From an uncultured Collinsella sp. (lineage in GTDB: Bacteria; Actinomycetota; Coriobacteriia; Coriobacteriales; Coriobacteriaceae), in assembly GCA_900550815.1 (NCBI GenBank), contig URTW01000010.1, forward strand, positions 1 through 20,728: a stretch of 20,728 nt of DNA. The letters run 5' to 3'. The position numbers and the translations under genes are program-made. The notes beneath the pieces were generated by a model that searched no databases, was not told where the DNA came from, and was given only the letters and a program-made list of their open reading frames with translations. Of the stretch, positions 2,627 to 17,599 are shown piece after piece (positions within the stretch are counted from its first letter, which is position 1; each line of letters begins with the position of its first letter).

Positions 2627-2775
2627 CAGACGTATTTGACCTGCGCGATAAAGCTTCACGACTACGCGCCGTTCATGTTCGAGACAATATGACTTTTTGC
2701 CCGTTGTAAACGGAGTCGCGATGGGGGTTCTGTATGATGGCTCAGACAAGGTTGTTCAATGACAGGGAGGCATAT

Positions 2776-3618
2776 ATGGCAATCAAAGCCATCGCGATGG
2801 ATATCGACGGTACGCTCACCAACGACCAAAAGGTCATCAGCCCGCGCACGCGCGAAAAGCTGCTCGCGGCGCAGGAGTCGGGCATTAAGCTCATTTTGGC
2901 TTCGGGCCGTCCCGCATGGGGACTACATGCTCTGGCGCAGGAGCTCGACCTTCAAAACCATGACGGTCTGCTAGTCGCTTTCAATGGCGCGCATGTGGTC
3001 GACGCTCAGACCGATGAGGTTCTTTTTGACCAGGCCATGCCGGCTGACGAGCTGCACCGTCTGATTGATCATCTGCAAAACTATGATGTGATCCCCATGA
3101 TCTCGCTCGGTCGCGACTTGCATGTCGAGGACTCGTACCACTGCATGATTACGCTGCCGGATGGCTCGCAGAAAAACATTGTCAAATACGAGCGCGATGC
3201 CTGCGACCTTAAGATCCGCGAGGTCGAGAGCTTGCATGAGGTCGTGGACACTTATCCCGTAGACAAGCTGCTGACGGCAGGCGACCCGGCATACCTGCAG
3301 GCGCATTACGAGGAGATGTATGCGCCCTTTAAGCAGACGCTTTCGGGCATGTTTACGGCCGACTGGTACTTTGAGTACACGGCGCCCGGTATCGACAAGG
3401 CTCGTGCGCTCGAGGGTGCCCTGCCCAAGCTCGGCATCGATGCCAGCGAGGTCGTATCGTTTGGCGACGGCCAGAACGACAAGTCCATGATTGAGTGGGC
3501 GGGTACCGGTGTTGCCATGGGTAACGCCGTCGATGAGGTTAAGGCGGTAGCCCAGATGGTGACCGCCAATAACAACGAAGACGGTATTGCGGTGGCGCTG
3601 GATAAGCTGCTGGGCTAG
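2776..3618 (+). CDS. HAD-superfamily hydrolase, Cof subfamily
   Basis: Cytoplasmic phosphatase of the Cof/HAD-IIB type, 280 aa, usual length. The nucleophile motif DIDGTLT holds D9 and D11, motif II is ASGR (residues 42-45), a lysine occurs in VDKLL, and motif III/IV is GDGQND near residues 235-240. The region between motifs II and III (about 85-195) is the C2B cap. Cof enzymes dephosphorylate sugar phosphates or cofactor phosphates; the substrate cannot be read from sequence. I chose the ATG at 2776 because AGGGAGG lies 5 nt upstream. The frame is open to 2734, but the extra 14 residues would place the ribosome binding site inside the gene. The next HAD gene is 64 nt downstream. Confidence 0.87.
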   Translation: MAIKAIAMDIDGTLTNDQKVISPRTREKLLAAQESGIKLILASGRPAWGLHALAQELDLQNHDGLLVAFNGAHVVDAQTDEVLFDQAMPADELHRLIDHLQNYDVIPMISLGRDLHVEDSYHCMITLPDGSQKNIVKYERDACDLKIREVESLHEVVDTYPVDKLLTAGDPAYLQAHYEEMYAPFKQTLSGMFTADWYFEYTAPGIDKARALEGALPKLGIDASEVVSFGDGQNDKSMIEWAGTGVAMGNAVDEVKAVAQMVTANNNEDGIAVALDKLLG

Positions 3619-3682
3619 AATCGCCGATTAATGCATGGTTCGGGCGCCTGCTCGCGGGCGTCCTTTTGTTAGGGAGGGTGCC

Positions 3683-4342
3683 GTGTCCGCATTTCCGTTC
3701 GACGCCGTTATCTTTGACATGGACGGTGTCATTGTCGATACCGAGTATTACTACCTGGGCGAGACTGCCGCGTTTGCCAAGGAGCTTGGGCTTAATCTGA
3801 CTCAAGAGGAGTTGAATGGGCAGGTCGGTACCTCGCATCAGTTCTTCCTGCATATGCTGGTCGATTGGTTTGAGCGCGCCGGTAAGGGGCATTTCACTGG
3901 GGAGGAAGCGTTGGCCCGTTGGGACGAATGGGCCCATAAGCGTCCGCGCGACTATCAGGCTTTGATTAACCCAGGCGCCGTGGATACGATTCGAGAGCTG
4001 CCGCGCCGCGGCGTTCGCGTGGCGCTTGCCAGCTCGTCTCCCATGGATAGCATCGAAGAAGTGCTCAACGCATGCGGGCTGTCGGATGCCTTTGAGTATG
4101 TGGTGAGCGGCGAGCAGTTTAAGGAGAGCAAGCCCGAGCCCGACATCTACCTGCATGCGCTGGACCTGCTGGGGCTGCCCGCGAATCGCTGCTGCTGCGT
4201 TGAGGATTCGGTGCCTGGCATCACCGCTGGCAAGCGAGCCGGCCTGACAGTCATTGCCAAGCGCGAGGAGCGCTTTGGCTTTAGCCAGGATGCCGCGGAC
4301 AAGATTATCGACCAGCTGCCGGAGCTGCTCACGCTTTCTTAG
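3683..4342 (+). CDS. HAD-superfamily hydrolase, subfamily IA (beta-phosphoglucomutase-like)
   Basis: 219-aa cytoplasmic HAD enzyme with a small helical C1 cap. Motif I is FDMDGVIVDTE (D12 and D14), motif II is ASSSP, motif III is the lysine in KESKPEPDIY, and motif IV is VEDSVPGI. This pattern is typical of phosphatases and phosphoglucomutases such as YcjU, PgmB and YniC. The start is a GTG at 3683, set by AGGGAGG at 3671-3677 (5-nt gap); an in-frame ATG at 3635 lacks such a site. RCCCVED contains three adjacent cysteines before motif IV. It probably shares a transcript with the preceding Cof gene, and two weak hairpins follow its stop codon. Confidence 0.83.
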   Translation: MSAFPFDAVIFDMDGVIVDTEYYYLGETAAFAKELGLNLTQEELNGQVGTSHQFFLHMLVDWFERAGKGHFTGEEALARWDEWAHKRPRDYQALINPGAVDTIRELPRRGVRVALASSSPMDSIEEVLNACGLSDAFEYVVSGEQFKESKPEPDIYLHALDLLGLPANRCCCVEDSVPGITAGKRAGLTVIAKREERFGFSQDAADKIIDQLPELLTLS

Positions 4343-4492: not shown

Positions 4493-5236
4493 ATGCCACC
4501 GACTGAAGGGCTAACTGACGGTAAAGCAGCGATACCGCTGTACCAACAGGTTATTGATATCATCAAAAACGAAATCAACTCCGGCGCCTACAAGTCAGGC
4601 GCGCGGATACCCAACGAATTCGAATTGGCTGAGAGCTATAAAGTTGGCCGCGTTACCGTGCGACGCGCTATTGAGGAGCTCGTCCAGCAGGGCTATCTAA
4701 CGAAGCGGCAGGGGAAAGGCACGTTTGTCAATGCCCCCAAGCTAACGCGCAAGATTCGCCAGAAGGATGACGTCCAGAGTTTTTCGGACGCATGCCGCGT
4801 TAACGGAATGGAGCCGGGGGCGTGCGTCATTTCGAGAAAGATACTGCCGGCGGATTCCACCGAAGCGCAGTTCTTTGGTGTTCCCGTTGGAACTGACTTG
4901 ATTTGCGTTGAGCGCGTGCGCACTGCCGATGGCGTCCCTGTCATGCTCGAGAACAACATATATGTTTACGAGGACAACGCCTATCTATCAACGGCACCTC
5001 TATCTAACCAATCCATTTTTGAGTTCGTGCGCAACCGGACGGGCCGCACGCCCGCGTTTACCGACCCGTGCACGCTCGAGATCGCGTGCGCGTCGCCCGA
5101 GGTCGCTCGACTGTTGGCGGTTCCCGTTGGCGAACCCTTGTTTTATATGGAAGCCTTCTTTTTCGATGAGCAGCGGCGGCCGTTTATCATCGGTCGTCAG
5201 CGGATCGTTGGGTCTCGCTACGTTTTTGACATCTAG
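4493..5236 (+). CDS. GntR-family regulator, HutC subfamily (UTRA domain)
   Basis: 247-aa transcription factor. Residues 15-79 form the GntR winged helix (PLYQQVIDIIKNEI, then VTVRRAIEELVQQGYL and KRQGKGTFV). Residues from about 98 to 243 form a UTRA effector-binding domain, usual for regulators that sense sugars, amino sugars or histidine derivatives. FrlR, the regulator of the E. coli fructoselysine genes, is of the same type. The ATG follows GGAGAGG by about 4 nt. It is encoded just ahead of, and in the same direction as, the frl-like cluster. It most likely represses that cluster through the palindrome at 5390-5412, and the ligand is probably a phosphorylated intermediate (inference). It has its own promoter. 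Confidence 0.88.
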   Translation: MPPTEGLTDGKAAIPLYQQVIDIIKNEINSGAYKSGARIPNEFELAESYKVGRVTVRRAIEELVQQGYLTKRQGKGTFVNAPKLTRKIRQKDDVQSFSDACRVNGMEPGACVISRKILPADSTEAQFFGVPVGTDLICVERVRTADGVPVMLENNIYVYEDNAYLSTAPLSNQSIFEFVRNRTGRTPAFTDPCTLEIACASPEVARLLAVPVGEPLFYMEAFFFDEQRRPFIIGRQRIVGSRYVFDI

Positions 5237-5248
5237 GACATTGCGACT

Positions 5249-5284
5249 GGAAGCGCCCGGTGGATCATCTCACCGGGCGCTTCC
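5249..5284 (+). terminator. perfect 14-bp hairpin after the GntR gene
   Basis: GGAAGCGCCCGGTG and CACCGGGCGCTTCC form a perfect 14-bp stem with an 8-nt loop, starting 12 nt after the stop codon. There is no T run after it (ATACCG). It is probably a tail-less terminator separating the regulator from the cluster. Confidence 0.6.
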
Positions 5285-5346
5285 ATACCGTTCACGGCGC
5301 GAACGCAACCGTTCAACCGCGTTGCGGCAATCAGTTTGAAATTATC

Positions 5347-5375
5347 TTGATGAAGGAAAAAGCTGCTGGTAATCT
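5347..5375 (+). promoter_or_regulatory. promoter of the catabolic cluster
   Basis: TTGATG (5347-5352) and TAATCT (5370-5375) with a 17-nt spacer. The predicted transcription start is near 5382, directly before the 23-bp palindrome and about 73 nt before the carrier gene. Confidence 0.5.
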
Positions 5376-5389
5376 ATGGGACGTCATAG

Positions 5390-5412
5390 AACGTTTGCAT
5401 TGTGCAAACGTT
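5390..5412. promoter_or_regulatory. perfect 23-bp palindromic operator
   Basis: AACGTTTGCA and TGCAAACGTT are perfect 10-bp arms around the 3-nt centre TTG. It lies just downstream of the predicted promoter, the classic place for a repressor to block transcription. The adjacent GntR/HutC regulator is the obvious candidate to bind it (inference). I saw no second copy in the window. Confidence 0.65.
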
Positions 5413-5454
5413 GAAGCGAGATGCGATGCAGTCTCGAGTTCTTTGGAGGTATCT

Positions 5455-6918
5455 ATGTCAGATACGAAGGCGAAGAAGACAAACAGACGTTTTAAGTTCA
5501 AATTACCGCATGTCTATACGATCATGTTCTTGCTGATCGTTGTCTTTGCGGTCCTGACTTGGATCGTTCCCTCTGGTCAGTATCAGCGCAAGACGATTTC
5601 GACAGCGGCGGGCGAGCGTGAAGTCGCCGTTGCTGGAACCTATGAACAGGTCGATAAGAACTACACCGATTCCGAGACCGGCGAGACCATCAATCTGGGC
5701 CAGGATATCTTCGCGGTCCTGCAAGCGCCCACCAAGGGTATCCAGGAGGCTGCCGACGTCGTTGCGTTCGTCTTATTGATTGGCGGATCGTTCGCAATCA
5801 TCACCAAGACCAACGCTTTGAATGCCGGCATGAGCCGTGTGGTTAAAAAGCTCAAGAACAAGGACATCCTCATCATTCCCATCACGATGACGTTGCTGTC
5901 CATTTGCGGCACTACGTTTGGTATGTCTGAGGAAGCCCTGCCGTTCTATGCCATCTTCATTCCCATCATGATGGGTATCGGCTATGACTCGATGACGGCA
6001 TTCATCATCTGCTTCCTTGGTCCCAACCTGGGATATTGTGCTTCGACCATCGACCCGTTTAATGTTTTGATCGCCCAAGGCATCATTGGCATCGAAGGCA
6101 ATCCGCAACTGTGGCTGCGCGCCGTTTCTTGGGTCATCTTCACTGCCGTCGGTATCGCATGGGCCATGCGCTACGCCATGCGCGTCAAGAAAAACCCCGA
6201 GTCGTCCATTACGTACGAGGACGATAAGCTCAAGCGTATTGAGTTTTCCGTGACCGATGCCTCCATCGAGGAAGAGTTCACTATCCGTCAGAAGCTCGTG
6301 CTTATCGATTTTGCCTGCGGTATGGGCATTATCGTCTGGGATCTTGTTACCCAGGGCTGGTACATAAATGAGATTTCCGACATGTTCCTTGGCATGGGCT
6401 TGCTTGCCGGTATCCTGGGCGGTCTTGACCAGCAGACGATCGCTGAGGAGTTCGTTAAGGGTCTCGCCGACTTTGCGTACGCTGCCATCGTTATCGGTAT
6501 CGCTCGCGGTATTCTGGTCATCGCCGAGGGTGGCATGATCATCGACACCATCCTCCAGGCGCTCGCTACTGCGCTCGCCGGTGCACCAGCCGCCGTCTAC
6601 ACCACGTTTATGTATATCGTCCTTGGCCTGCTCTCTTTGCTGGTTCCCTCGAGTTCTGGCCTGGCGGCGCTCACCATGCCCGTTATGGGCTCCCTGACCG
6701 AGCTCATGGGCCTCAATCCCGAGGCGGCCGTCACCGCGCTCCAGTTTGCCAACCAGACCATCAACACCATCAGCCCCGTGGCGGGCATGACGGTCGCTGG
6801 CCTTGCCGTGGCTAGGATTTCGTTTGGCCAATGGTGGAAGTCCATTTGGAAGGTCGTCAGTTTCTTGGGCGTCTGTGGCCTGAGCGGACCGGCAAGCTCT
6901 GGCATGCTTCCGGTGTAG
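5455..6918 (+). CDS. YfcC-family membrane carrier
   Basis: 487-aa polytopic inner-membrane protein of the YfcC/DcuC-like family, whose members carry amino acids or C4-dicarboxylates. The N-terminus is basic and cytoplasmic (KAKKTNRRFKFKLPH). Transmembrane segments begin near residue 20 (TIMFLLIVVFAVLTWIVPSG) and continue as hydrophobic stretches to the end, about 11-12 in total. The family signature LLVPSSSGLAALTMPVM is present, as are FGMSEEALPFYAIFIP and the ANQTINTISPVAGM stretch. The start at 5455 is set by TTTGGAGG 5 nt upstream; the frame is open further upstream but crosses the promoter and operator. As the first gene of the frl-like cluster it probably imports the substrate, in place of the unrelated E. 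coli FrlA. The last segment is short and glycine-rich (FLGVCGLSGPASSGMLPV), weaker than usual for a terminal helix. Confidence 0.82.
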   Translation: MSDTKAKKTNRRFKFKLPHVYTIMFLLIVVFAVLTWIVPSGQYQRKTISTAAGEREVAVAGTYEQVDKNYTDSETGETINLGQDIFAVLQAPTKGIQEAADVVAFVLLIGGSFAIITKTNALNAGMSRVVKKLKNKDILIIPITMTLLSICGTTFGMSEEALPFYAIFIPIMMGIGYDSMTAFIICFLGPNLGYCASTIDPFNVLIAQGIIGIEGNPQLWLRAVSWVIFTAVGIAWAMRYAMRVKKNPESSITYEDDKLKRIEFSVTDASIEEEFTIRQKLVLIDFACGMGIIVWDLVTQGWYINEISDMFLGMGLLAGILGGLDQQTIAEEFVKGLADFAYAAIVIGIARGILVIAEGGMIIDTILQALATALAGAPAAVYTTFMYIVLGLLSLLVPSSSGLAALTMPVMGSLTELMGLNPEAAVTALQFANQTINTISPVAGMTVAGLAVARISFGQWWKSIWKVVSFLGVCGLSGPASSGMLPV

Positions 6919-6927
6919 GTGGCTGTG

Positions 6928-8511
6928 ATGTCTGATCGTTTGACGGTCCTGACGTCTAAGAGCGTCTTTACCGGTACGGGGGACCTGCCGTTTGAAGGTT
7001 TCGTAGCGGTCCGTGGCAATCGAATTGAGGCTGTTGGCACCAAGTGTGAGGTAGCTTCGTAGTTGACCCAGGCGGACGAGGTAGTTGACCTGGGCGACCG
7101 CACTGTCATGCCTGGCCTGATCGATGTGCATACCTTCTATACAGGTTGGGCGCTGCGGACGTTGGGGTCTGATCTGTCCGGCGTCGCTGATGCCAAAGAG
7201 GCCGTGTCGCTCTTGCGTGCATGGAAAGAAGATCATCCGGATTGCGCGGCGGCTTTTGGCCACAACCTGCCCGAAACGTTGGCATCGGATGCCGAGAACG
7301 CAAATACGGCAGCTGTGTTTGACGATTGTTTTGGCGATATCCCTGTCGTCTGCTTTACACCGGGTGCGGAGACCTGCGTTCTCAATGCTGCCGCCAGTGC
7401 GCGATACGGCTTTACGCCCCAGGCGTGCTATGCCGAGAAGATCTGGCGCATGATGAGCGATTTCCTCGCGCTGCCCGAGGTGCGTGCCGGGTATTCGGAC
7501 TACATGAGCATGCTTAACGAGCGCGGCGTTACCGCCATCAAGGAGATGGCGTTTGATGACTACTACGGCTTTGCCGACGAAATGGCTCGCCGTGAGGAAT
7601 CTGGTGAGCTGACGGTTCGCGTCTCTATGATGTCGCAGCCGGTAGGTGCCGGTGCAAATCTGTCATATGCCCGCGAGGCACGAGAGCGCTTCCGGGGATC
7701 GTTCGTTCGTTTTTCTGGCTTCAACCGTATGACCGATCGCGGCGTATGGGCGGGGCTTGCCGAGATGATAGACCCCTATGAGGACACGGCCGATGCGGGC
7801 GCTGCCGGCAAGACGGTCGTCGAGGAGCCAGAGTGGGATCTGATTGAGAGCGAGCTACGTGCAATTGATGCTGACGGCTTCCGATATTCCTTGCATTGCC
7901 AGGGCGATGGCGCCGTTCGTCGCACCGTGGCGCTCTATGCCTCGCTGCCTCGAGACGAGCGTGGACGGATGCTTCGCCGCCATGCGATTACCGATCTCGA
8001 GAACTCTGACCCGACCGATCTTGTCGAGTTTGGCAAGTTGGGTGGAATTTGCGAGGTCTATCCGCAGATTTTGACGCTGGACCGGCGCGAGGATTGCCTG
8101 TCGATGATGCGTCGACAAATTGGCGAGACGCGACTTTTGCACAGCTGGAATCGCCGCGGCATGGAAGATTCCGGATGCACAGTGTGCTGTGGCACTGATT
8201 TACCGCTGCTGATTCCGAGCCTGGGCGAGTCAATCTACAGCGCGTGCGGCGGATTCTTCGCCGACGGACTGCCCGTGAATGAGGTCAACACGCTGACGCT
8301 TGTCGAGCTCTTGTGCGCTTGGACTGCCGGGGGCGCGTACGACCTGATGCGCGAAGACGAGCTGGGTACGCTCGAGGTTGGCAAGCTTGCCGATATCTGC
8401 GTGCTCGATCGGGATGTGTTCGACCTCGATTATCGCGACGCACGTGATCTTGCGGTTGACATGACGATGTCGGACGGACAAATCGTGTTCGATCGAAATA
8501 AGGAGGCATAA
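6928..8511 (+). pseudogene. YtcJ-like amidohydrolase interrupted by an in-frame TAG
   Basis: Amidohydrolase of the YtcJ/AepA (amidohydrolase 3) family, 527 codons from the ATG at 6928 to TAA, interrupted by TAG at 7060-7062 (codon 45). Both sides are in the same frame and read as one protein: residues 1-44 give the N-terminal strands (VLTSKSVFTGTG, AVRGNRIEAVGTK), and after the stop come VVDLGDRTVMPGLIDVH, HCQGDGAV, GTDLPL and the C-terminal LEVGKLADICVLDRD strand. The product may be lost, truncated, made by readthrough, or restarted at TTG 7063, which abuts the stop and would lack the first strands. The usual metal-binding HxH after GLIDV is HTF, so one ligand is missing. AGGTGG precedes the ATG, overlapping the stop of the carrier gene. 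The family hydrolyses amides or cyclic amides; the substrate here is unknown. Confidence 0.75.
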
Positions 8512-8512
8512 G

Positions 8513-9364
8513 ATGTCTGAATCCAAACCGACGCTGCACCGCGAACAGATTGCGGGCATGAATATCCACTACATCATGTGGTCGCTCGATTACTTCCTTG
8601 ATGTGCAGCAGCGTTTGGGCTTTGAGTCCATTGAGCTGTGGTGTGCGGAGCCGCATGTGACGCTCGACCACACGGGCTACTTTGAGGCTGAGGTCCTGGC
8701 GAAAAAGGCTTCAGACCGTGGGCTTAGGTATCGTACTCTGTGCCCCGAGAATGTTGTCTATCCTTGGCAGTACTGCGCACGCAAACCGCTGCATGAACAG
8801 CGCAGCCTGGCGTACTTTAAGCACGGCATTGAGCTTGCCGAGGTACTTGGGTGCGACCGTATGTCCGTCAACTCGGGCTGGGGCGACTGGGACGAGGACC
8901 GCGGGGAAGCCTGGAAGCGTAGCCGCGAGCACTTGTCCATTCTGGCGGAGTATGCCGGCGAGCACGGTCTGGTGCTTACGATGGAAAGCCTGCGTCCCGA
9001 GGAGAGCAACCTTGTGACGACGGTTTCCGATGCGAAGCGCATGATTGACGAGGTCGCGAGCCCGTACTTACAGCCCATGGTTGATACAACCGCGATGGGC
9101 GTTGCAGGCGAGACGCTCGAGGACTGGTTTGCCGCCTTTGGTGATGGGGCAATTCACGAGATGCACTTTATCGACGGTGACCCGTATGGCCATCTGGTAT
9201 GGGGCGATGGCAAGCACGATATGGACGCCTTTGTCGCCACACTCAACGCCCATGGTTTCGACGGCATGCTGGGCCAGGAAATCACGGACGGTCGTTACTA
9301 CGATGACCCGGCGGCGGCAGATGCCAAGAACATGGCAGCATTCGAGAAATATCTGATTGACTAA
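8513..9364 (+). CDS. frlC: FrlC-like sugar (fructoselysine 3-) epimerase
   Basis: 283-aa TIM-barrel protein of the AP endonuclease 2 / sugar phosphate isomerase-epimerase family. The closest match I recognise is E. coli FrlC, which interconverts fructoselysine and its C3 epimer psicoselysine. Shared features include the IELW segment (residues 40-43), CPENVVYP, and the strand TMESLRPEESNLV, which parallels EPLTPYESNVV of FrlC. The four metal ligands expected in the family are present: E158, D191, H218 and E256. AAGGAGG lies ahead of the ATG, and the gene starts one base after the stop of the amidohydrolase, so translation is probably coupled. The exact substrate cannot be fixed from sequence; another ketosugar epimerase is possible. 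Confidence 0.78.
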   Translation: MSESKPTLHREQIAGMNIHYIMWSLDYFLDVQQRLGFESIELWCAEPHVTLDHTGYFEAEVLAKKASDRGLRYRTLCPENVVYPWQYCARKPLHEQRSLAYFKHGIELAEVLGCDRMSVNSGWGDWDEDRGEAWKRSREHLSILAEYAGEHGLVLTMESLRPEESNLVTTVSDAKRMIDEVASPYLQPMVDTTAMGVAGETLEDWFAAFGDGAIHEMHFIDGDPYGHLVWGDGKHDMDAFVATLNAHGFDGMLGQEITDGRYYDDPAAADAKNMAAFEKYLID

Positions 9365-9426
9365 AACAACTATCGGCCACGCAACCAACGTCATTGATTG
9401 CGGGCCAAATAAGAAAGGAACTGGAT

Positions 9427-10395
9427 ATGAACGCACACGATCTGATCAAAGAGGCAATTGCCGAGAAGGGCAAGTTCGACAGCGTCTACTGGATTGCTTG
9501 CGGTGGCTCCATGATCGATTTGATCCCGGCTCACGAGCTTCTGCAGCGCGAGGCAACCACCTTCACTTCGTATATCTATACGGCTCGCGAGTTCGATATC
9601 ATGCGTCCTCGTCGTCTGGGCGAGAAGTCCCTGGTCATTGCTTGCAGCCACAGTGGCAACACCCCCGAGGTCGTCGAGGGCTGCGAGATTGCCCTTGCTG
9701 CCGGCGCTACGGTGATCGCCCAGACCGACAACGCTGGATCTAAGATCGACTCCGGCAAGTGGACCACGTGGGTCTACCCGTGGGGCGAGGGTGTGCCGCA
9801 GGCCGAGGTCCCCGCTGGCATTTCGCTGTCGCTTGCGGCAGAGCTGCTCGATCAGCAGGAGGGCTACGCCGATCTTGCCGATATGTATGCCGGTATCGCC
9901 GAGATGGATAAGATTCTTCCTCCGGCACGTGAGAAGGTAAATGCCGAGCTGGGCGATCGCTTTGCCAAGCTTTGCCAGGAGCACGAGTTCTTCTATATTC
10001 TGGGCAGCGGTCCCAACTTTAGCCAGACCTACGGTTTCGCTATCTGCTCTCTTATGGAGATGCAGTGGCAGCACTGCAGCTACATCCACTCTGCCGAGTA
10101 CTTCCATGGCCCCTTCGAGGCTACTCAGGATGGCGTTTTTTACTTCCTGCAGATGGGCTCCAGCGAGTGCCGTGCTATGGACGAGCGCGCCCTGGCGTTC
10201 CTTAAGACGCATACCGATACGCTGATGGTGCTCGATGCCAAGGAGTACGGTATGGAAGCCGTGCCGGCGAGCGTCCGTGCCTATCTGGACCCGGTGCTGT
10301 TCTACGCCATGAACTGCGAGCTGCGTGCTGCACGCGGCAAGGTGTTCGATCACGATCCCGATTTCCGTCGCTATATGGGTGTTGTCGAGTACTAG
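9427..10395 (+). CDS. frlB: FrlB-like SIS-domain deglycase
   Basis: 322-aa cytoplasmic protein with two SIS domains, in the FrlB/FraB group that splits fructoselysine 6-phosphate (or fructose-asparagine 6-phosphate) into glucose 6-phosphate and the free amino acid. Domain 1 has the phosphosugar loop ACSHSGNTPEV (residues 72-82). Domain 2 carries LGSGPNFSQTYG and the family segment HSAEYFHGPFE (221-231), matching SGEFRHGPLE in E. coli FrlB. The C-terminal signature FDHDPDFRRYMGVVEY also closely matches the E. coli protein (DHNPDERRYYGGLVEY). The start is the ATG at 9427, with AAAGGAA 8 nt upstream; the frame is open 11 codons further but has no better site. It is the key evidence that the cluster handles an Amadori-type compound. 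Confidence 0.85.
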   Translation: MNAHDLIKEAIAEKGKFDSVYWIACGGSMIDLIPAHELLQREATTFTSYIYTAREFDIMRPRRLGEKSLVIACSHSGNTPEVVEGCEIALAAGATVIAQTDNAGSKIDSGKWTTWVYPWGEGVPQAEVPAGISLSLAAELLDQQEGYADLADMYAGIAEMDKILPPAREKVNAELGDRFAKLCQEHEFFYILGSGPNFSQTYGFAICSLMEMQWQHCSYIHSAEYFHGPFEATQDGVFYFLQMGSSECRAMDERALAFLKTHTDTLMVLDAKEYGMEAVPASVRAYLDPVLFYAMNCELRAARGKVFDHDPDFRRYMGVVEY

Positions 10396-10409
10396 AAGGG
10401 GCAAAGGCC

Positions 10410-11273
10410 ATGGCATTTAACGTTAACGCGCTCGGATTTGGCGACAACGTCGTCGATCGCTACGAGCATATCCACACCATGTATCCCGGCGGCAATGCGG
10501 TGAACTTTGCCGTTTATGCCAAGAAATGCGGTGCCGCACGCTCCGCATACATGGGCATTTTTGGCAATGACGCCGCTGCCGAGCATGTTATTGCAAGCCT
10601 CGAGGATGAGGGTATCGAGCTTGACAAGTGCGAGCAGATGATTGGCGAGAACGGAGCGGCTCGCGTGACCGTCGTTGACGGTGACCGTGTCTTCCTTGGC
10701 TCCAACGAGGGCGGTATCCGTGGCGATGCGCGCTATGTCCTCGATCGCTTTGACCTTGCGTACATGAAGCAGTTCGATGTGGTTCATTCGGGCAACTATT
10801 GCTTTACCGAGCGCGAGCTGCCCAAGTTGAAGGCTGCGGGCGTCACGGTCTCTTTTGACTTTTCGGACGACTCCACCGACGAGTACTACGAGCAGATTGC
10901 GCCCTACGTTGATTTCGCTTTCTTTAGTGCGGCGGATGCCGCGAGTGAGGACGAGATTCGCGAGCGTTTGGCATGGGTGAAGGGTCTGGGTCCGCGTTTT
11001 GTGTCGGCTACGGCGGGCGCCGAGGGCTGCATTGCTTACGACGGCGAGCGTTATTACCGCCAGCTGGCTAAACCGGTAACGGACATGAAGGACACCATGG
11101 GGGCGGGCGACTCGTTCCTCACCGCGTGTTTGATGTGCTATCTCGATTCAGCCAAGCGTGGTGAGGATGGCGCCGAGGCCATCGAGCGCGCGCTCGACTT
11201 TGCTGCCGGGTTTGCCTCGACCGTGTGCGGTATGGAAGGTTCTTGGGGTCACGGGGCACCAATCGTCGAATAG
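10410..11273 (+). CDS. frlD: FrlD-like PfkB kinase
   Basis: 287-aa sugar kinase of the ribokinase/PfkB family, closely resembling E. coli FrlD (fructoselysine 6-kinase). The N-terminus GFGDNVVDRYEHIHTMYPGG, followed by NAVNFAVYA, parallels IGDNCVDIYPQ and GGNAVNVAVY of FrlD. The substrate-binding GGNAVN is at 27-32, SFDFSDD lies mid-protein, and the catalytic base is D234 in DTMGAGDSF. It uses ATP to phosphorylate the imported compound so that the SIS enzyme can cleave it. A short gap of 14 nt follows the FrlB-like gene, with AAGGGG as ribosome binding site. A terminator-like hairpin follows, so this may be the last gene of the proximal transcript. Confidence 0.83.
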   Translation: MAFNVNALGFGDNVVDRYEHIHTMYPGGNAVNFAVYAKKCGAARSAYMGIFGNDAAAEHVIASLEDEGIELDKCEQMIGENGAARVTVVDGDRVFLGSNEGGIRGDARYVLDRFDLAYMKQFDVVHSGNYCFTERELPKLKAAGVTVSFDFSDDSTDEYYEQIAPYVDFAFFSAADAASEDEIRERLAWVKGLGPRFVSATAGAEGCIAYDGERYYRQLAKPVTDMKDTMGAGDSFLTACLMCYLDSAKRGEDGAEAIERALDFAAGFASTVCGMEGSWGHGAPIVE

Positions 11274-11343
11274 CTTAAGAAAGCGTACGGCGGTCTGGCT
11301 ATGAGGCCTTGGACAGCCGATGCAAAACAATATGCGAAACGCG

Positions 11344-11377
11344 AAAAGGGGGCTCGCCATATGGTGGGTCCCCTTTT
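11344..11377 (+). terminator. strong hairpin dividing the catabolic cluster
   Basis: A 34-nt nearly complete dyad: AAAAGGGG (11344-11351) pairs with CCCCTTTT (11370-11377), and the inner bases continue to pair with three G-T wobbles up to CCAT/ATGG. The A run before and T run in the second arm are typical of intrinsic terminators. It ends 7 nt before the ribosome binding site of the second kinase, so it probably reduces or conditions expression of the distal genes. Confidence 0.65.
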
Positions 11378-11394
11378 GAACATTGGAGAAGAGT

Positions 11395-12195
11395 ATGGGT
11401 ATTAAAGCGTGTGCGGCTGGTTTTTGCTGCGCGGACGTCTATCAAAACATCGGCGTGTTCTATCCGACTGGTAACGGCATTGACTGGGGTATCCATCTTG
11501 CACGAATGGGCGTTTCGGTATCCGCCGTGTCGGTTGTCGGCAAGGACGAGTACGGAGACAAGATGAGAGAGGCGCTGGCCGCTGAGGGGCTCGATATCTC
11601 ACATCTGCGGGTGGAGGATGGCGACACCTCGGTGATGCTCATGGCGTTGAAAGACGGCGTCGATCGCGTACATCTCGAGGCAATTGATGGCGTAATGGAG
11701 ACATATCGACCGAATGAAGACGACCGGGAGTTTATCCTAGAGCATGACATCATTCACACCGACCTGTTTGGCAATTGTTTGGACCTCCTGCCCGAATGGC
11801 ATAATGCGGGCAAGACGGTGGTTATGGACTTCTCGGTGTTCAGCCAGGATCCCGAATATGCATGCGAGGCTCATTTTCCTTACGTAGACTATGCGTTCAT
11901 GTCGTTTGAAGAGGACACTCCGGAGCTGCGGGACTGGGTACGCCACGTGCAGGGATTGGGACCGCGCGTTGCGGTTGCCACGCTTGGCGAGAAGGGGAGC
12001 ATTGCCTATGACGGTGAGCGCTTCTATGAGTGCGGGATCGTACCGGCGGAGAAGGTCGTTAATACCGTGGGTGCCGGCGACTCGTATATTGCCGGGTTTA
12101 CCAAGGGCGTGATCGATGGCCTTAATATTCCGGCGTGTATGAAGGCGGGTGCTGAGCTGTCGTCCCGAGTGATTGGTTCGTTTGAGCCGTACTAG
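11395..12195 (+). CDS. second, diverged PfkB/FrlD-type kinase
   Basis: 266-aa PfkB-family sugar kinase and a paralogue of the preceding gene. The catalytic motif NTVGAGDSY (base D229) and AVATLGEKGSIAYDGERFY are intact. The substrate-binding segment differs: TGNGID (25-30) stands where the first kinase and FrlD have GGNAVN. It therefore probably phosphorylates a different sugar or derivative. The start is the ATG at 11395, with GGAG 6 nt upstream; an in-frame TTG at 11383 precedes that site and is unlikely. The gene lies immediately after a strong hairpin, and 27 nt before the next amidohydrolase, so it appears to open the distal half of the cluster. Confidence 0.8.
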   Translation: MGIKACAAGFCCADVYQNIGVFYPTGNGIDWGIHLARMGVSVSAVSVVGKDEYGDKMREALAAEGLDISHLRVEDGDTSVMLMALKDGVDRVHLEAIDGVMETYRPNEDDREFILEHDIIHTDLFGNCLDLLPEWHNAGKTVVMDFSVFSQDPEYACEAHFPYVDYAFMSFEEDTPELRDWVRHVQGLGPRVAVATLGEKGSIAYDGERFYECGIVPAEKVVNTVGAGDSYIAGFTKGVIDGLNIPACMKAGAELSSRVIGSFEPY

Positions 12196-12222
12196 GGTCA
12201 AATGCCTGGAAAGGAGTACGAA

Positions 12223-13083
12223 ATGGTTATCGACATGTTGGTCCATCCTATGCTCTACGGCGAGATCTGTAAGCCGGGTGATGAGCCTGATGGATTCGGC
12301 TTTTGGTCACGAGAATTTGGTATGGGGCATATGGGCCCCATGGATTGGGATGAGCTTCAAGTCGAGATGGACGTCTGCGACGTGCAGAAGAGTGTACTCA
12401 TGCCGCTCGATGTAACCACGGCATGCGGAGGGCATTTTGGCACCAATGACCAGATTGCCATGCTGGTTGCCGCGCATCCCGATCGTCTATGGGGATTTGC
12501 GAGCGTAGATCCGCAGGTGAGCGGTGCCGCAGACGAATTGGAGCGCGCCTTTACCGAGTTGGGGGCAAAGGGGCTTTGCCTGCATCCTGCAAAGCAGGGT
12601 TTTGCCCCCGATGATGCTGTGGCCGAGCCGCTTTACGAGCTGTGCGAGCGCTATAACAATCCGGTGGTTTTCCATGCCGGTATGTCTTGGGAGCCTGGCG
12701 CAGAGCTCTCGCGCAGTAATCCGCTTGCATTTGAGCACACAATCGCAACGCATCCAAATGTGCGCTTTAGTTTGACCCACTTTGGCTGGCCCTGGGTGCG
12801 CGAGACCGTGGCGATGCTGCTCAAGTATCCCAACTGCTACACGGACACCTCTATCACTTACATCGATTCGCCCGAGGAGATGATGCAGCGTCTTTTCACG
12901 GTCGATATGGGGCCGCTGTGGTATGAGCGCGCGCTATCGCATCAAGTGATGTTCGCCAGCAATACACCGCGCTTCCGTGCGTTCAAACTCAAGCGGGCAC
13001 TCGATACCGTGTCCATGCGCGATGATGCGCGAGAAAGGCTCTACGGGGGTAATGCCCTGCGTTTTCTTGAAGGGGATGAGTGA
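12223..13083 (+). CDS. amidohydrolase-2 family TIM-barrel protein with altered metal site
   Basis: 286-aa protein related to the amidohydrolase 2 family (metal-dependent hydrolases and decarboxylases). Family-like elements are the N-terminal strand and turn VIDMLVHP, GFASVDPQ, GLCLHPAKQGFAPDD, VVFHAGMSW, SLTHFGWPWV and the C-terminal LYGGNALRFL. Two expected metal or catalytic positions differ: the usual H-x-H reads L-V-H (Leu at 12238-12240), and the usual Asp of FGSD-P reads Asn in FASNTP (residue 247). The activity may thus be unusual or lost. The start is the ATG at 12223, with GGAAAGGAG 6 nt upstream; the ATG at 12202 lies before that site. The stop overlaps the next gene's possible GTG start by 4 nt. 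Confidence 0.75.
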   Translation: MVIDMLVHPMLYGEICKPGDEPDGFGFWSREFGMGHMGPMDWDELQVEMDVCDVQKSVLMPLDVTTACGGHFGTNDQIAMLVAAHPDRLWGFASVDPQVSGAADELERAFTELGAKGLCLHPAKQGFAPDDAVAEPLYELCERYNNPVVFHAGMSWEPGAELSRSNPLAFEHTIATHPNVRFSLTHFGWPWVRETVAMLLKYPNCYTDTSITYIDSPEEMMQRLFTVDMGPLWYERALSHQVMFASNTPRFRAFKLKRALDTVSMRDDARERLYGGNALRFLEGDE

Positions 13084-13514
13084 ACATGGTGACACTCGAG
13101 ACATTGAGCTATCTATCGACTGCTCCGGACCAGTTCATCGATATTACCGAGGACGTGCACGCTGCCATCGAACGCAGCTCGGTGACCAATGGCTTGGCAG
13201 CGATTATTTTGTCGCATACGACCTGTGGAATCGTGGTAAACGAGGGGCTGCCCTGCGTGGAGACGGATCTTATGGAGACGCTTGCTCGCATCGCCCCACT
13301 CGATGCCCCCTATGCGCACGCACACTTCTTGCCGAGCTATGGAGCCACCGGTAACAACTCCTGTGGGCATATCAAGAGCATGATTTGTGGAAACAGTTGC
13401 TTCTTTCCCGTCCAAGATGGCCACATCGTGTGCGGAAGTGCCCAGAACATCTATCTTGCGGAGTTTGACGGTCCGCAGAAGCGAAAAGTGTACGTCGAGG
13501 TGCTGGGGGAGTAA
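13080..13514 (+). CDS. yjbQ: YjbQ family protein (UPF0047)
   Basis: 144-aa small cytoplasmic protein of the YjbQ/UPF0047 family, about the normal length. Members fold as beta sandwiches and some show a side activity of thiamine-phosphate synthesis; their real role is not settled. Conserved segments are LSHTTCGIVVNE (44-55), matching QHTSASLTLNEN in E. coli YjbQ, GHIKSMICGNSCFFPVQDG (96-114), and CGSAQNIYLAEFDG. The GTG at 13080 overlaps the preceding stop and sits 4 nt after AGGGG; an ATG at 13086 is an alternative. Its tight place between an amidohydrolase and a BtpA-family gene suggests a catabolic role rather than thiamine synthesis (inference). Confidence 0.82.
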   Translation: MNMVTLETLSYLSTAPDQFIDITEDVHAAIERSSVTNGLAAIILSHTTCGIVVNEGLPCVETDLMETLARIAPLDAPYAHAHFLPSYGATGNNSCGHIKSMICGNSCFFPVQDGHIVCGSAQNIYLAEFDGPQKRKVYVEVLGE

Positions 13515-13547
13515 CGTCCCTGCAATAACCCTATGAAGGAGCGCGTT

Positions 13548-14357
13548 ATGTCGTTTCTAACTTCGATGTTCAAGACCGAAAAGCCGGTTATCGGAATGCT
13601 GCACCTGCGTCCTCTGCCGGGCGATCCACTGTATTACCCGGGCGGAAGCGTGTCACAAGTCGTGGAAGCCGCCAAGCGCGATCTCGAAGCGTTGCAACAG
13701 GGCGGTGTCGATGGCATTTTGATTACCAATGAGCTCTCGATGCCCTATGAGCAGCACGTTTCTGCTTCAACCCTTGCATCGATGGGCTATGTAATCGGGG
13801 CTCTGTCCCATGATCTGTCGACCCCTTGGGGAGCCGAGGCTATTTACGACGGTGATGCCACAATCGAGCTGTGCGCTGCCGTCGACGCGCAGTTCACGCG
13901 CTGCAATTTTTGCGGTGCCTGGGCCGGTGATCTCGGGCTGATTAACCGAGATTTCGCGCACACCATGCGTCGCAAGGCGGCGCTGCGCCTGGACGACCTC
14001 AAGCTTTTTCACTTCATCACGAGCGAGGGGGAGGTTTATCTTAACGACCGCACGACTGCGGACATTGCCGATTCACTTCTCTTTAATTGCCTACCGGATG
14101 CGATGGTCATCGGCGGTTCGGCTGCCGGTCGTGGCGCTTCGGGCGAGCTTGCCGATGAGGTTCGCGAGCGTGTTGGCCAAGTACCTGTGGTATGTGGCAC
14201 CGGTTGTCGCGAAAATACCGTGGCTGGCGTATTTGCTCACTACGATGGCGCGTTTGTCGGCACGTGCTTAAAGCGCGACGGAAAGCTGGATGCCCCGGTC
14301 GATGTTGAGCGGGTAGCTCGTGTTATGGCTGCCGCTCGTACGGCGCGAGGGGAGTAG
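13548..14357 (+). CDS. BtpA/SgcQ family TIM-barrel protein
   Basis: 269-aa protein of the BtpA/SgcQ family, predicted TIM barrels of unproven function. BtpA is named for a cyanobacterial photosystem I biogenesis factor, and SgcQ is encoded in an E. coli sugar operon. Recognisable segments are KPVIGMLHLRPLPGDP, GVDGILITNELSMPY, CGAWAGDLGLINRD, DAMVIGGSAAGRGAS, VPVVCGTGCRENTV and the barrel-end AFVGTCLKRDGKLDAPVD. The latter two are typical of phosphate-binding barrel loops. The start is the ATG at 13548, with GAAGGAG 6 nt upstream; the ATG at 13533 lies before that site. It follows yjbQ by 33 nt and precedes the FGGY kinase by 6 nt, so it probably acts on a sugar-linked intermediate in the same pathway. 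Confidence 0.83.
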   Translation: MSFLTSMFKTEKPVIGMLHLRPLPGDPLYYPGGSVSQVVEAAKRDLEALQQGGVDGILITNELSMPYEQHVSASTLASMGYVIGALSHDLSTPWGAEAIYDGDATIELCAAVDAQFTRCNFCGAWAGDLGLINRDFAHTMRRKAALRLDDLKLFHFITSEGEVYLNDRTTADIADSLLFNCLPDAMVIGGSAAGRGASGELADEVRERVGQVPVVCGTGCRENTVAGVFAHYDGAFVGTCLKRDGKLDAPVDVERVARVMAAARTARGE

Positions 14358-14363
14358 GCACCT

Positions 14364-15881
14364 ATGGCGCTCTATCTGGGTATTGATATTGGGACAAGCG
14401 CCTCTAAAGGCGTTTTAATCGATGATCGATGCAACATCGTTTGCCAAGCCTCTTGTGGACACGAGACGGACAACCCGTGTGATGGATGGTACCAGCATGA
14501 TGCGGAGGCAGTTTGGTGGGGCGATTTTTGCCGCTTGTCGCGCGAGCTGGTGGCGCGATCGGGGGTTAACGCGGCGCAGATCGGATGCGTGGGCCTTTCC
14601 GCATTGGGTTGCGACTGTGTGCCGGTCGATACCGAGTGCAATGCGCTGGCGCCCGCGATTTTGTATGGAGTCGATGCACGTTCGAAGCCGCAGATTGACG
14701 AGCTTCTTTCCGAATATGGGTCAGACCGCGCACGCGAGCTTTTCGGGCACGATCCCTGTTCGTCAGATATTGCTCCCAAGATCTTGTGGTTTAAGGAGAA
14801 TATGCCCGAGGTGCACGAACGTGCCGCGAAGTTCCTGACGGCGTCGTCGTTTCTATGCGCAAAGTTGACGGGGCGTTTTACGGTGGACCGTTATTTGGCG
14901 GAGGATTTTCTTCCCCTATACGACCGCTTCACTTGGAAGGTTGATGCTCGGGAATGTGCTCGTTTCTGCCGGCCTGACCAGATGGCGGAGGTAATGTCGG
15001 CTACTGATATTGCCGGGGTGATTATGCAGCGTGCGGCAGAGGCGACGGGGCTCGCGGCAGGGACACCTGTCTTAGTGGGATCGGGCGATTCTGGTGCCGA
15101 GGCCATTTCGACGGGTGTATTCCGTCCTGGCGATATGATGGTTCAGTTGGGGAGTACGGCGTATTTCATCTACCTAGCTGATCATATGATCGATGATGCC
15201 CGCCTGTGGCCAGGGACGTTTATCATTCCCGGAACTTACGGGATCTGCGCGGGGACCATTACGGCGGGCGCACTCACATCGTGGCTGCGCCAAGAGCTGT
15301 ATCGCGACGCCGTAGAGGCCGAGGGCCACGGTGGTCCCGCTGCCTATTCGGTTATGGCGCATGATGCCGCCGATGTGGCGCCGGGTGCCGATGGGCTCCT
15401 GTGTCTGCCGTACTTTGCGGGGGAGCGTACTCCGCTCAACGATCCCGAGGCGCGTGGCGTCTTCTTTGGCCTGACCGGAAGGCATACGCGAGCCCATATG
15501 GTTCGCGCCGCCTTGGAAGGCGTCGCGTATACCGTTGCATCCCATGTCGACATTATCGAGCGAGAGCATGGTCTGCCAATTGGGCGCATTATGCTTGTCG
15601 GAGGTGGAACCAAGAATCCAGTTTGGATGCAAGCTATCGCCGACGTATGCGGGCGCGAGGTCTCGGTTGCCAAGGTTACGGTGGGTGCATGCTTCGGTGA
15701 TGCCATCATGGCAGCTCTCGCAGGTGGCGCCTATGCATCATGGGATGAACTTGCCCGAGTCCTTGGCGTTGCGCAAACAATCGAGCCCGATATGACTGCC
15801 CACGAGTTATATGCGTCGCGCCGTCATATCTTCGACGAATTGTATGCACGCAACCGTGATCTCATGCACGAATTGGTGTAA
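14364..15881 (+). CDS. FGGY-family carbohydrate kinase
   Basis: 505-aa kinase of the FGGY family (xylulokinase, gluconokinase, glycerol kinase and relatives), full length. Motifs are the phosphate-binding GIDIGTSASKG (6-16), the catalytic-Asp segment VGSGDSGAEA, GERTPLNDPEARGVFFGL, and the second FGGY signature MLVGGGTKNPVWMQAIADV. It would phosphorylate a pentulose, hexulose, polyol or aldonate; the sequence does not settle which. GAGGGGAG, overlapping the previous stop, lies about 9 nt before the ATG. It is the last gene of the cluster and is followed by a terminator. With the two PfkB kinases, the cluster encodes three sugar kinases, more than one linear pathway for an Amadori compound would need. 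Confidence 0.85.
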   Translation: MALYLGIDIGTSASKGVLIDDRCNIVCQASCGHETDNPCDGWYQHDAEAVWWGDFCRLSRELVARSGVNAAQIGCVGLSALGCDCVPVDTECNALAPAILYGVDARSKPQIDELLSEYGSDRARELFGHDPCSSDIAPKILWFKENMPEVHERAAKFLTASSFLCAKLTGRFTVDRYLAEDFLPLYDRFTWKVDARECARFCRPDQMAEVMSATDIAGVIMQRAAEATGLAAGTPVLVGSGDSGAEAISTGVFRPGDMMVQLGSTAYFIYLADHMIDDARLWPGTFIIPGTYGICAGTITAGALTSWLRQELYRDAVEAEGHGGPAAYSVMAHDAADVAPGADGLLCLPYFAGERTPLNDPEARGVFFGLTGRHTRAHMVRAALEGVAYTVASHVDIIEREHGLPIGRIMLVGGGTKNPVWMQAIADVCGREVSVAKVTVGACFGDAIMAALAGGAYASWDELARVLGVAQTIEPDMTAHELYASRRHIFDELYARNRDLMHELV

Positions 15882-15960: not shown

Positions 15961-16743
15961 TTAGCGAAGGTCAAAAACAGCGTGCGCATTTGCTAAAACT
16001 GCCGACTCGATGCGCTTTGCGTCACAGTTTTTGAGTGAGGCAATGCGCATCGAGGTCCTTGTGAGCGATCTGATGAGCGACTGTGCGCTTGTTTCTGTGT
16101 TTGGTTCGGCTGGTGCATCGGTCTCGAGCAGTAAACGATCGAGTGGAATCTGTCGTGCGTATTCGCGACCGCGCTTGGTCGCGAGCATGCGTTCGTTGAC
16201 GGAAAAATAACAGCCCGCATTACGCGCGCGGGCGAGTTCGTCCGAAGTGCCGCTAAACCAGTGGAAGATGATAGCGGGGGAGTCGGGGTTTGGGATGAGT
16301 AGTCCATGCGATTCGAGGATATCCAGTACGGTTCCTGCCGAACGAACGGCGTGAATTGATATCACGCGCTCGGCAAGAGGATGCTGCACGAGCGTATCGC
16401 AGAGCCGGTCAAATGCCTGTATTTGTAGCGGCTCACTTCCGGCAAAACGCGTGGAAAAGTCGAGCCCGACCTCGCCGATGTAGCGCGCTTGGGCAGCAAC
16501 TTCGCAAAGCAGATTGACTTCGGCAGGACCGCAGCGGCCGTCGGCGAGCCACCAGGGGTGAAGCCCAATGCCGGCGATGATGCCTGGTTGGCGACGGACG
16601 CGCTCGTTTGCGGCCGAAAAGTCGCGTGGATCGACGCCGCAATCAAATAGACCCAAGCCCAGCGCCGTTGCCTCATCGGCAACGGCGTCCGGGTGAGCCA
16701 TTAAATCAAGATGGCAGTGTGCATCAAATAACCGGGGCTCCAT
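15961..16743 (-). CDS. tatD: TatD-family metal-dependent DNase
   Basis: 260-aa cytoplasmic hydrolase of the TatD family, normal length. Metal ligands are visible: D7, H9 and H11 in FDAHCHLD, E91 in GEVGLDF, H131 in ISIHAVRS, H161 in IIFHWFSG and D209 in LLETDAP. TatD proteins are Mg-dependent 3'-5' exonucleases with roles in DNA repair and turnover. HWFSG where many members have HCFSG or HGFSG is a mild variation. The ATG at 16743 follows GGAGAG by about 8 nt. The gene lies 14 nt after the end of the full-length tcdA frame, so the two probably form an operon. It has no obvious link to the catabolic cluster, with which it converges. Confidence 0.88.
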   Translation of the reverse strand: MEPRLFDAHCHLDLMAHPDAVADEATALGLGLFDCGVDPRDFSAANERVRRQPGIIAGIGLHPWWLADGRCGPAEVNLLCEVAAQARYIGEVGLDFSTRFAGSEPLQIQAFDRLCDTLVQHPLAERVISIHAVRSAGTVLDILESHGLLIPNPDSPAIIFHWFSGTSDELARARNAGCYFSVNERMLATKRGREYARQIPLDRLLLETDAPAEPNTETSAQSLIRSLTRTSMRIASLKNCDAKRIESAVLANAHAVFDLR

Positions 16744-17555: not shown

Positions 17556-17599
17556 AGACATCCTCCGATGGGGAAGTGAATCGTGTTCTAGCTATCGCC

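What the first reader, a model, noticed from the sequence alone, without database searches (positions are those of the whole stretch)
4493..15881. Extended Amadori-product catabolic cluster with extra chemistry
Seen: FrlB-, FrlC- and FrlD-like genes lie together behind a HutC-type regulator, but the importer is a YfcC-family carrier and the run continues with two amidohydrolases, a second PfkB kinase, YjbQ, BtpA and an FGGY kinase. Known: the E. coli frl operon needs only FrlA, B, C, D and R, and I recall a report that Collinsella intestinalis consumes fructoselysine. Inference: the extra enzymes point to a substrate with an additional amide, ring or sugar unit, or to a second pathway feeding the same intermediates. 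I know of no description of this full gene set.
Basis: partly seen in the sequence, partly recalled or inferred. Interest (0 to 1): 0.75.

Follow-up and report, generated by a model that had tools for sequence, protein, structure and literature searches.

The report
Two-part gut glycation-product degradation cluster
A gut bacterium of the Collinsella aerofaciens group carries a cluster that probably takes up and breaks down sugar-amino acid compounds made when food is heated, and it includes a second, separable set of enzymes of unknown role that travels with such genes in other bacteria too.

Summary
The gene run is real: eleven + strand genes. Comparison splits it in two. Module A (GntR, DcuC/YfcC carrier, Ah3 amidohydrolase, FrlC-like, SIS deglycase, PfkB1) recurs in other Coriobacteriia and, without FrlC, in an Acetivibrio MAG, Klebsiella, Citrobacter and Enterococcus; it resembles Salmonella's fra locus with Ah3 where the asparaginase would be. 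Module B (PfkB2, Ah2, YjbQ, BtpA, FGGY) is present in 6 of 14 C. aerofaciens-type loci. In 246 Coriobacteriia genomes Ah2 and a distinct YjbQ subtype occur in the same 13, adjacent in 13 of 13, and all 13 also carry Ah3. Ah2-YjbQ also sits with PfkB and SIS genes in Enterococcus faecium and Niallia. The importer is not unusual (FraA precedent), and the 'extra amide' idea is weakened because both amidohydrolases have altered metal ligands. In this window Ah3 is interrupted by a stop, possibly a sequencing error. Likely a two-module fructosamine pathway: a new variant of a known kind. The substrate and the Ah2, YjbQ and BtpA reactions are unknown.

The parts
4493..5236 (+). GntR/HutC-type (UTRA) regulator
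   Evidence: PF07702 80.2 bits, PF00392 70.9 bits
5390..5412 (.). Perfect palindrome AACGTTTGCATTGTGCAAACGTT upstream of the carrier gene: candidate operator of the GntR regulator
   Evidence: same core in L031, L066, L079, changed centre in L078; not found as such in the other genera tested; function not tested
5458..6918 (+). DcuC/YfcC-family carrier (FraA-like role inferred); 6841-6896 looks error-prone
   Evidence: PF03606 361.5 bits; YfcC equivalog NF008611 318.2 bits, below cut-off 500
6928..8511 (+). Ah3, Amidohydro_3 protein with HxF instead of HxH; frame interrupted by TAG at 7060-7062 in this window (TTG at 7063 follows)
   Evidence: PF07969 126.8 bits for 7063-8511
8513..9364 (+). 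FrlC-like sugar isomerase/epimerase
   Evidence: PF01261 118.1 bits; best NCBIfam model fructoselysine 3-epimerase, 93.7 bits, cut-off 305
9427..10395 (+). SIS-domain deglycase (FrlB/FraB-like); lowest dN/dS of the run, 0.005
   Evidence: PDB 3eua E 5.6e-56, motifs, dN/dS
10410..11273 (+). PfkB1 kinase, FrlD-like
   Evidence: PF00294 100.8 bits; NF007321 181.8 bits, cut-off 247
11344..11377 (.). Terminator-like 15-bp hairpin between module A and module B
   Evidence: same hairpin in L035, L066, L078, L079
11395..12195 (+). PfkB2 kinase, passes the fructoselysine 6-kinase (FrlD) model
   Evidence: NF007321 264.8 bits, cut-off 247
12223..13083 (+). Ah2, Amidohydro_2 protein with altered metal ligands
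   Evidence: PF04909 133 bits; start chosen by homologue length (286 aa)
13086..13514 (+). YjbQ/UPF0047, frl-linked subtype
   Evidence: TIGR00149 104.2 bits, cut-off 67.75
13548..14357 (+). BtpA/SgcQ family protein, phosphate-binding TIM barrel by predicted structure; start chosen by homologue length (269 aa)
   Evidence: TIGR00259 183.1 bits, cut-off 153.4; model pLDDT 88.2, folds
14364..15881 (+). FGGY-family carbohydrate kinase
   Evidence: FGGY_C 140.9 and FGGY_N 121.5 bits; XylB model 278.8 bits, below cut-off 380.25

Best explanation
The locus is an Amadori-product (fructosamine) catabolic cluster made of two joined modules. Module A: the DcuC/YfcC carrier imports a carboxylate-bearing glycated amino acid, most likely alpha-glycated; Ah3 acts on its amino-acid side (the slot of the Salmonella asparaginase FraE), FrlC interconverts the fructosyl and psicosyl forms, PfkB1 phosphorylates C6 and the SIS enzyme releases glucose 6-phosphate and the amine; the GntR protein senses the substrate or its phosphate. 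Module B: PfkB2 (a FrlD) brings a second glycated amine, probably of the fructoselysine/psicoselysine type, to the same SIS enzyme, while Ah2-YjbQ and FGGY-BtpA convert a related by-product or sugar that the deglycase cannot use; BtpA would be an aldolase, lyase or epimerase on the FGGY product. Shown: gene content, motif conservation, modularity, linkage. Inferred: every substrate and reaction.
For: SIS nearest 3eua in the PDB (that this is B. subtilis FrlB is recalled) with the deglycase motifs kept; SIS protein 99-100% identical across C. aerofaciens-type strains, dN/dS 0.005. B. subtilis FrlB/FrlD prefer alpha-glycated amino acids (PMC12632257, passages). FraA is Dcu-like. Module A recurs as SIS-PfkB-Ah3-YfcC-GntR in Klebsiella and Citrobacter and as SIS-frlD-GntR-Ah3-YfcC in E. 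faecium, and as YfcC-Ah3-SIS-PfkB in an Acetivibrio MAG; in an Atopobium contig (L062) the gene after PfkB1 is a fumarase/aspartase-type lyase (PF00206, 345 bits), one case that would fit an aspartate-type amine. Module B: Ah2 in 13 of 246, frl-type YjbQ in the same 13, gap 5-12 nt, all 13 with Ah3 in the genome, 11 of 13 within 15 kb; with frlD, an amino acid permease and SIS in E. faecium DO plasmid 2 and with SIS and PfkB in Niallia; on the same island as a FrlA-like permease (343 bits, below its cut-off of 800) in Olsenella-type genomes. The capped top-120 homologue lists of BtpA, Ah3 and Ah2 share 10 (BtpA/Ah3), 11 (BtpA/Ah2) and 10 (Ah3/Ah2) contig lengths of 5 kb or more, chance mean 0.1-0.2. 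dN/dS of module B genes 0.07-0.13. PfkB2 passes the FrlD model.
Confidence: 0.55

Rival explanations
1. Module B is an independent sugar or lactone pathway (FGGY kinase plus BtpA barrel, PfkB2, Ah2, YjbQ) that merely became a neighbour of a fra-like operon; it does not feed on Amadori products.
For: BtpA stands with FGGY, SDR, DeoR and sugar ABC transporter genes, without SIS in the annotation shown, on Thermus (also an epimerase) and Labrenzia plasmids, and beside FGGY in a Rhizobium plasmid; hairpin and strain-level presence/absence; module B at a locus separate from the SIS homologue in G184, G191, G195.
Against: Ah2-YjbQ lies next to PfkB and SIS genes in Enterococcus and Niallia and on an island with a FrlA-like permease in Olsenella-type genomes; in 246 Coriobacteriia genomes it was found only where Ah3 is also in the genome, 13 of 13.
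Confidence: 0.2
2. The whole run is an epsilon-fructoselysine/psicoselysine pathway like E. coli frl with a different importer, the extra genes handling lysine-side or minor by-products.
For: PfkB2 passes the FrlD model, FrlC-like gene present. Collinsella spp. are named among genera with fructoselysine genes (PMC9749803, passages). C. intestinalis using fructoselysine is recalled; I saw only one sentence that it degrades dietary AGEs, in the discussion of PMC10255453 (passages).
Against: No FrlA-type permease in the run; Dcu-type carrier as in fra; best PDB match of the SIS protein is 3eua, recalled as alpha-preferring B. subtilis FrlB, while the E. coli FrlB model scores 110 bits (different programs, so a weak comparison).
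Confidence: 0.2
3. The SIS enzyme acts on another N-substituted amino sugar phosphate (Heyns product or opine-like compound), not an Amadori product.
For: SIS-type deglycases for glucoselysine 6-phosphate are known (PMC12675984, passages), and relatives are common on Agrobacterium and Rhizobium plasmids (60 and 18 of 414 records).
Against: The closest PDB chain is 3eua at 193 bits; 2a3n and 8glr, recalled as Gfr-type, score 114 and 113.
Confidence: 0.1

Closest known systems
Salmonella fra locus (fraR, fraB, fraD, fraA, fraE; fructose-asparagine)
   Same: GntR regulator, SIS-type enzyme, sugar kinase, Dcu-family carrier (PMC4072780, passages)
   Different: Ah3 instead of the asparaginase, FrlC-like gene added, plus module B
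E. coli frl operon (FrlA, B, C, D, R; composition as given in the finding and recalled)
   Same: SIS, epimerase-like and PfkB proteins, GntR-type regulator
   Different: No FrlA-type permease; FrlB and FrlC models missed; only PfkB2 passes the FrlD model
B. subtilis frlBONMD-frlP
   Same: Deglycase plus kinase (PMC12632257, passages); SIS protein nearest 3eua (identity as FrlB recalled)
   Different: ABC importer there, Dcu-type carrier here; extra enzymes
Klebsiella/Citrobacter SIS-PfkB-amidohydrolase-YfcC-GntR operon (no operon name in the records)
   Same: Same five families as module A, 34-48% identical
   Different: No FrlC, no module B, other gene order
E. coli sgc region (SgcQ)
   Same: BtpA/SgcQ family member in a sugar-type operon
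   Different: PTS subunits and M42 peptidase; no SIS, YjbQ or FGGY listed beside it

Membership tests
E. coli-type frl operon | FrlB equivalog | tested here: not met
   NF008481 110 bits, cut-off 430
E. coli-type frl operon | FrlC equivalog | tested here: not met
   NF007360 93.7 bits, cut-off 305
E. coli-type frl operon | FrlD equivalog | tested here: met
   PfkB2 264.8 bits, cut-off 247; PfkB1 181.8, not met
E. coli-type frl operon | FrlA-type amino acid permease in the operon | tested here: not met
   the carrier is DcuC, PF03606; no other transporter among the genes 4493-15881
Salmonella-type fra locus | Dcu carrier + SIS + PfkB + GntR together | tested here: met
Salmonella-type fra locus | Asparaginase (FraE) | tested here: not met
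   no asparaginase family among the Pfam hits of the genes 4493-15881
SIS fructosamine-6-P deglycase | Conserved Glu in MEMQW and His in the HS(A/G)E(F/Y)FHG motif | tested here: met
   alignment to 3eua and 9otj; PDB chain 9otu carries Ala at the Glu; their catalytic role is recalled
SIS fructosamine-6-P deglycase | Activity on a 6-phosphofructosamine | not testable with these tools
   needs an assay
Amidohydrolase superfamily metal centre (Ah3) | HxH on strand 1 | tested here: not met
   HxF: Phe in 110 and the first His in 109 of 112 aligned homologues; Lys, two His and Asp kept in 112 of 112; ligand roles recalled
Amidohydrolase superfamily metal centre (Ah2) | HxH and the C-terminal Asp | tested here: not met
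   window has LxH and Asn; family: first His in 85 of 113, Asn in 109 of 113; Olsenella-type Ah2 keep both His and Asp; ligand roles recalled
YjbQ/UPF0047 | TIGR00149 above cut-off | tested here: met
   104.2 bits, cut-off 67.75
BtpA/SgcQ | TIGR00259 above cut-off | tested here: met
   183.1 bits, cut-off 153.4; photosystem I equivalog NF045918 not met, 127.4 of 400
Xylulokinase | TIGR01312 above cut-off | tested here: not met
   278.8 bits, cut-off 380.25

The most novel reading that the evidence does not exclude
Ah2 and the frl-type YjbQ form a dedicated two-protein step of Amadori catabolism that has not been described, together with FGGY-BtpA as a route for a non-glucose or rearranged sugar; this would give the widespread UPF0047/YjbQ family and the BtpA family a physiological substrate in bacteria.
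Probability: 0.35. Interest if true: 0.8.

Novelty: new variant of a known kind. Interest (0 to 1): 0.6.

Why it matters
Amadori products are abundant in heated food and gut bacteria decide their fate. The cluster defines two testable modules in a common gut genus. Natural strains with and without module B allow a direct comparison. YjbQ and BtpA are widespread families whose physiological roles are, as far as I recall, open; a fixed Ah2-YjbQ pair in glycation-product loci makes their function testable.
Full report
What is there. The window comes from a Collinsella aerofaciens-like genome: the SIS protein is 99-100% identical to copies on 11 Collinsella contigs (L031-L041) and in 13 of 98 related genomes. 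Between 4493 and 15881, all on the + strand, lie eleven genes: a GntR/UTRA regulator, a DcuC/YfcC-family carrier, Ah3 (Amidohydro_3), a FrlC-like protein, a SIS protein, PfkB1, PfkB2, Ah2 (Amidohydro_2), YjbQ, BtpA and an FGGY kinase.

State of the window's copies. Ah3 should start at 6928 and is interrupted by TAG at 7060-7062. Of the 22 sequences aligned, the other 21 have no stop there. The preceding 6841-6896 differ at 11 positions from L078 and L066, 8 of the 11 to G against L078, in a stretch otherwise about 97% identical; I take base-calling error as a serious possibility for both. The SIS protein keeps the MEMQW glutamate and the HSAEYFHG motif.

Module A. In the 14 C. aerofaciens-type loci examined (L031-L041, L066, L078, L079) the order is GntR, carrier, Ah3, FrlC, SIS, PfkB1; the contig of L035 starts inside the carrier. 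A second, diverged copy (gntR-yfcC-frlC-sis-pfk1, 57-84% identical) is in four fetched loci (L067, L070, L071, L080), with Ah3 in two of the four. In plasmid records, tblastn found SIS-PfkB-amidohydrolase-YfcC-GntR in Klebsiella pneumoniae (beside pyrBI and argF, so of chromosomal type) and Citrobacter freundii (carrier labelled NhaC but 47% identical to the window's carrier), and SIS-frlD-GntR-amidohydrolase-YfcC in Enterococcus faecium. An Acetivibrio MAG has YfcC-Ah3-SIS-PfkB (L063). This is the Salmonella fra layout, where FraA is Dcu-like (PMC4072780, passages), with Ah3 in place of the asparaginase. The nearest solved chains are 3eua, 193 bits (recalled as B. subtilis FrlB), and 9otj, 190 bits. 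B. subtilis FrlB and FrlD prefer alpha-glycated amino acids, E. coli the epsilon form (PMC12632257, passages). In an Atopobium contig a fumarase/aspartase-type lyase gene follows PfkB1 (L062). Together this favours an alpha-glycated, carboxylate-bearing substrate; it is an inference.

Module B. PfkB2-Ah2-YjbQ-BtpA-FGGY follows PfkB1 in 6 of 14 C. aerofaciens-type loci (L033, L035, L040, L066, L078, L079; in L033 and L040 the contig ends inside the module, and for the genome of L033 the rest lies on another contig, L125) and is absent in 8 of 14 (L031, L032, L034, L036-L039, L041), where tatD follows PfkB1. The same five genes in the same order are in Enorma burkinafasonensis (L042) and in L073, a genome whose contig length (2,115,681) equals that listed for Coriobacterium glomerans PW2. 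In an Atopobiaceae MAG (L058) PfkB2-Ah2-YjbQ follow PfkB1 and FGGY and BtpA are divergent. G035 (L074) has PfkB2, Ah2 and YjbQ without a BtpA match. L072 (G020) has BtpA and a partial FGGY match; Ah2 and YjbQ were not found in that genome at the limits used. A 15-bp hairpin between PfkB1 and PfkB2 is also in L035, L066, L078 and L079.

Linkage. In 246 Coriobacteriia genomes: Ah2 in 13, from 8 of 110 genera; YjbQ of any kind in 68, of which 13 score 212 bits or more and the next best 115. These 13 are the same genomes, with 5-12 nt between the two genes in 13 of 13 (G007's Ah2 is cut by a contig end). Ah3 was found in 25, of which I keep 23; all 13 are among them (hypergeometric 8e-16, not corrected for kinship), within 15 kb of Ah2 in 11 of 13 (in G191 914 kb away, in G007 on another contig). 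BtpA at 46% identity or more is in 10 of the 13 and in G020; ten further genomes have only distant matches. SIS at 58% or more is in 33 of 246, including 10 of the 13 but not G229, G262, G268. In four of the five (not G191) the adjoining stretch holds a permease of the same cluster as one with 343 bits to the FrlA model (cut-off 800), a SIS-domain protein and Ah3; names come from nine proteins of G229 and one of G268, the rest by similarity. E. faecium DO plasmid 2 has SIS, GntR, frlD, GntR, amino acid permease, YjbQ, Ah2 (a shorter gene) and Ah3; Niallia taxi has SIS, Ah2, YjbQ and PfkB; their SIS proteins are distant (24 and 27%). In the top-120 homologue lists, contig lengths of 5 kb or more are shared 10, 11 and 10 times (chance mean 0.1-0.2, largest of 2000 trials 4); six lengths are in all three, among them 83,023 bp, Ruminiclostridium sufflavum, with tags LY28_03068, 03071, 03077. 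Equal length is a proxy for the same contig.

Selection. dN/dS pooled over 4-6 strains against the window: SIS 0.005, PfkB1 0.054, GntR 0.054, FrlC 0.09, Ah3 0.103, carrier 0.195, PfkB2 0.083, Ah2 0.133, YjbQ 0.073, BtpA 0.112, FGGY 0.131. Module B does not look neutral where present. The carrier's value is probably inflated by the odd 3' stretch.

Judgement. I saw no description of the combined set in the searches listed under Tried and rejected, but two key papers were not readable. Interest 0.6: a clear, testable extension of a known pathway with two poorly understood protein families inside it.

Noticed in passing
window 16974-17561 (-): ThiF/TcdA-like gene is 195 aa here but 263-317 aa in the C. 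aerofaciens relatives: shortened in this window, real or sequencing error.
   Followed up: partly
window 6841-6896: Eleven differences in 56 nt, 8 of them to G, at the end of the carrier gene; looks like base-calling error.
   Followed up: partly
L031 11894-12116, and the same place in L034, L036, L037: In these strains without module B a roughly 220-nt element with 26-bp perfect inverted ends (in L031) lies between pfk1 and tatD; MITE- or RUP-like.
   Followed up: no
window 1952-4342; L075, L076, L077, L082: deoC, cof-HAD and a second HAD gene lie upstream; in four genomes of two other genera of the family deoC, sis, pfk1 and cof stand side by side, in three of the four with tatD and thiF nearby (the fourth contig ends first), so these genes may belong to the wider neighbourhood.
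   Followed up: partly
window 2776-3618: The cof gene has high synonymous divergence in some strains (dS up to 0.5, neighbours mostly about 0.1), suggesting recombination.
   Followed up: no
L068; SIS at 74-78% identity also in L043-L057: A third SIS type with its own GntR, in L068 between a RecQ helicase and a malate/lactate dehydrogenase-type gene; a further SIS gene with PTS EIID lies nearby; G001 has 10 SIS matches.
   Followed up: partly
window 15961-16743 (-): The TatD family gene scores best against QatD (192.5 bits, cut-off 230); probably an ordinary TatD.
   Followed up: no
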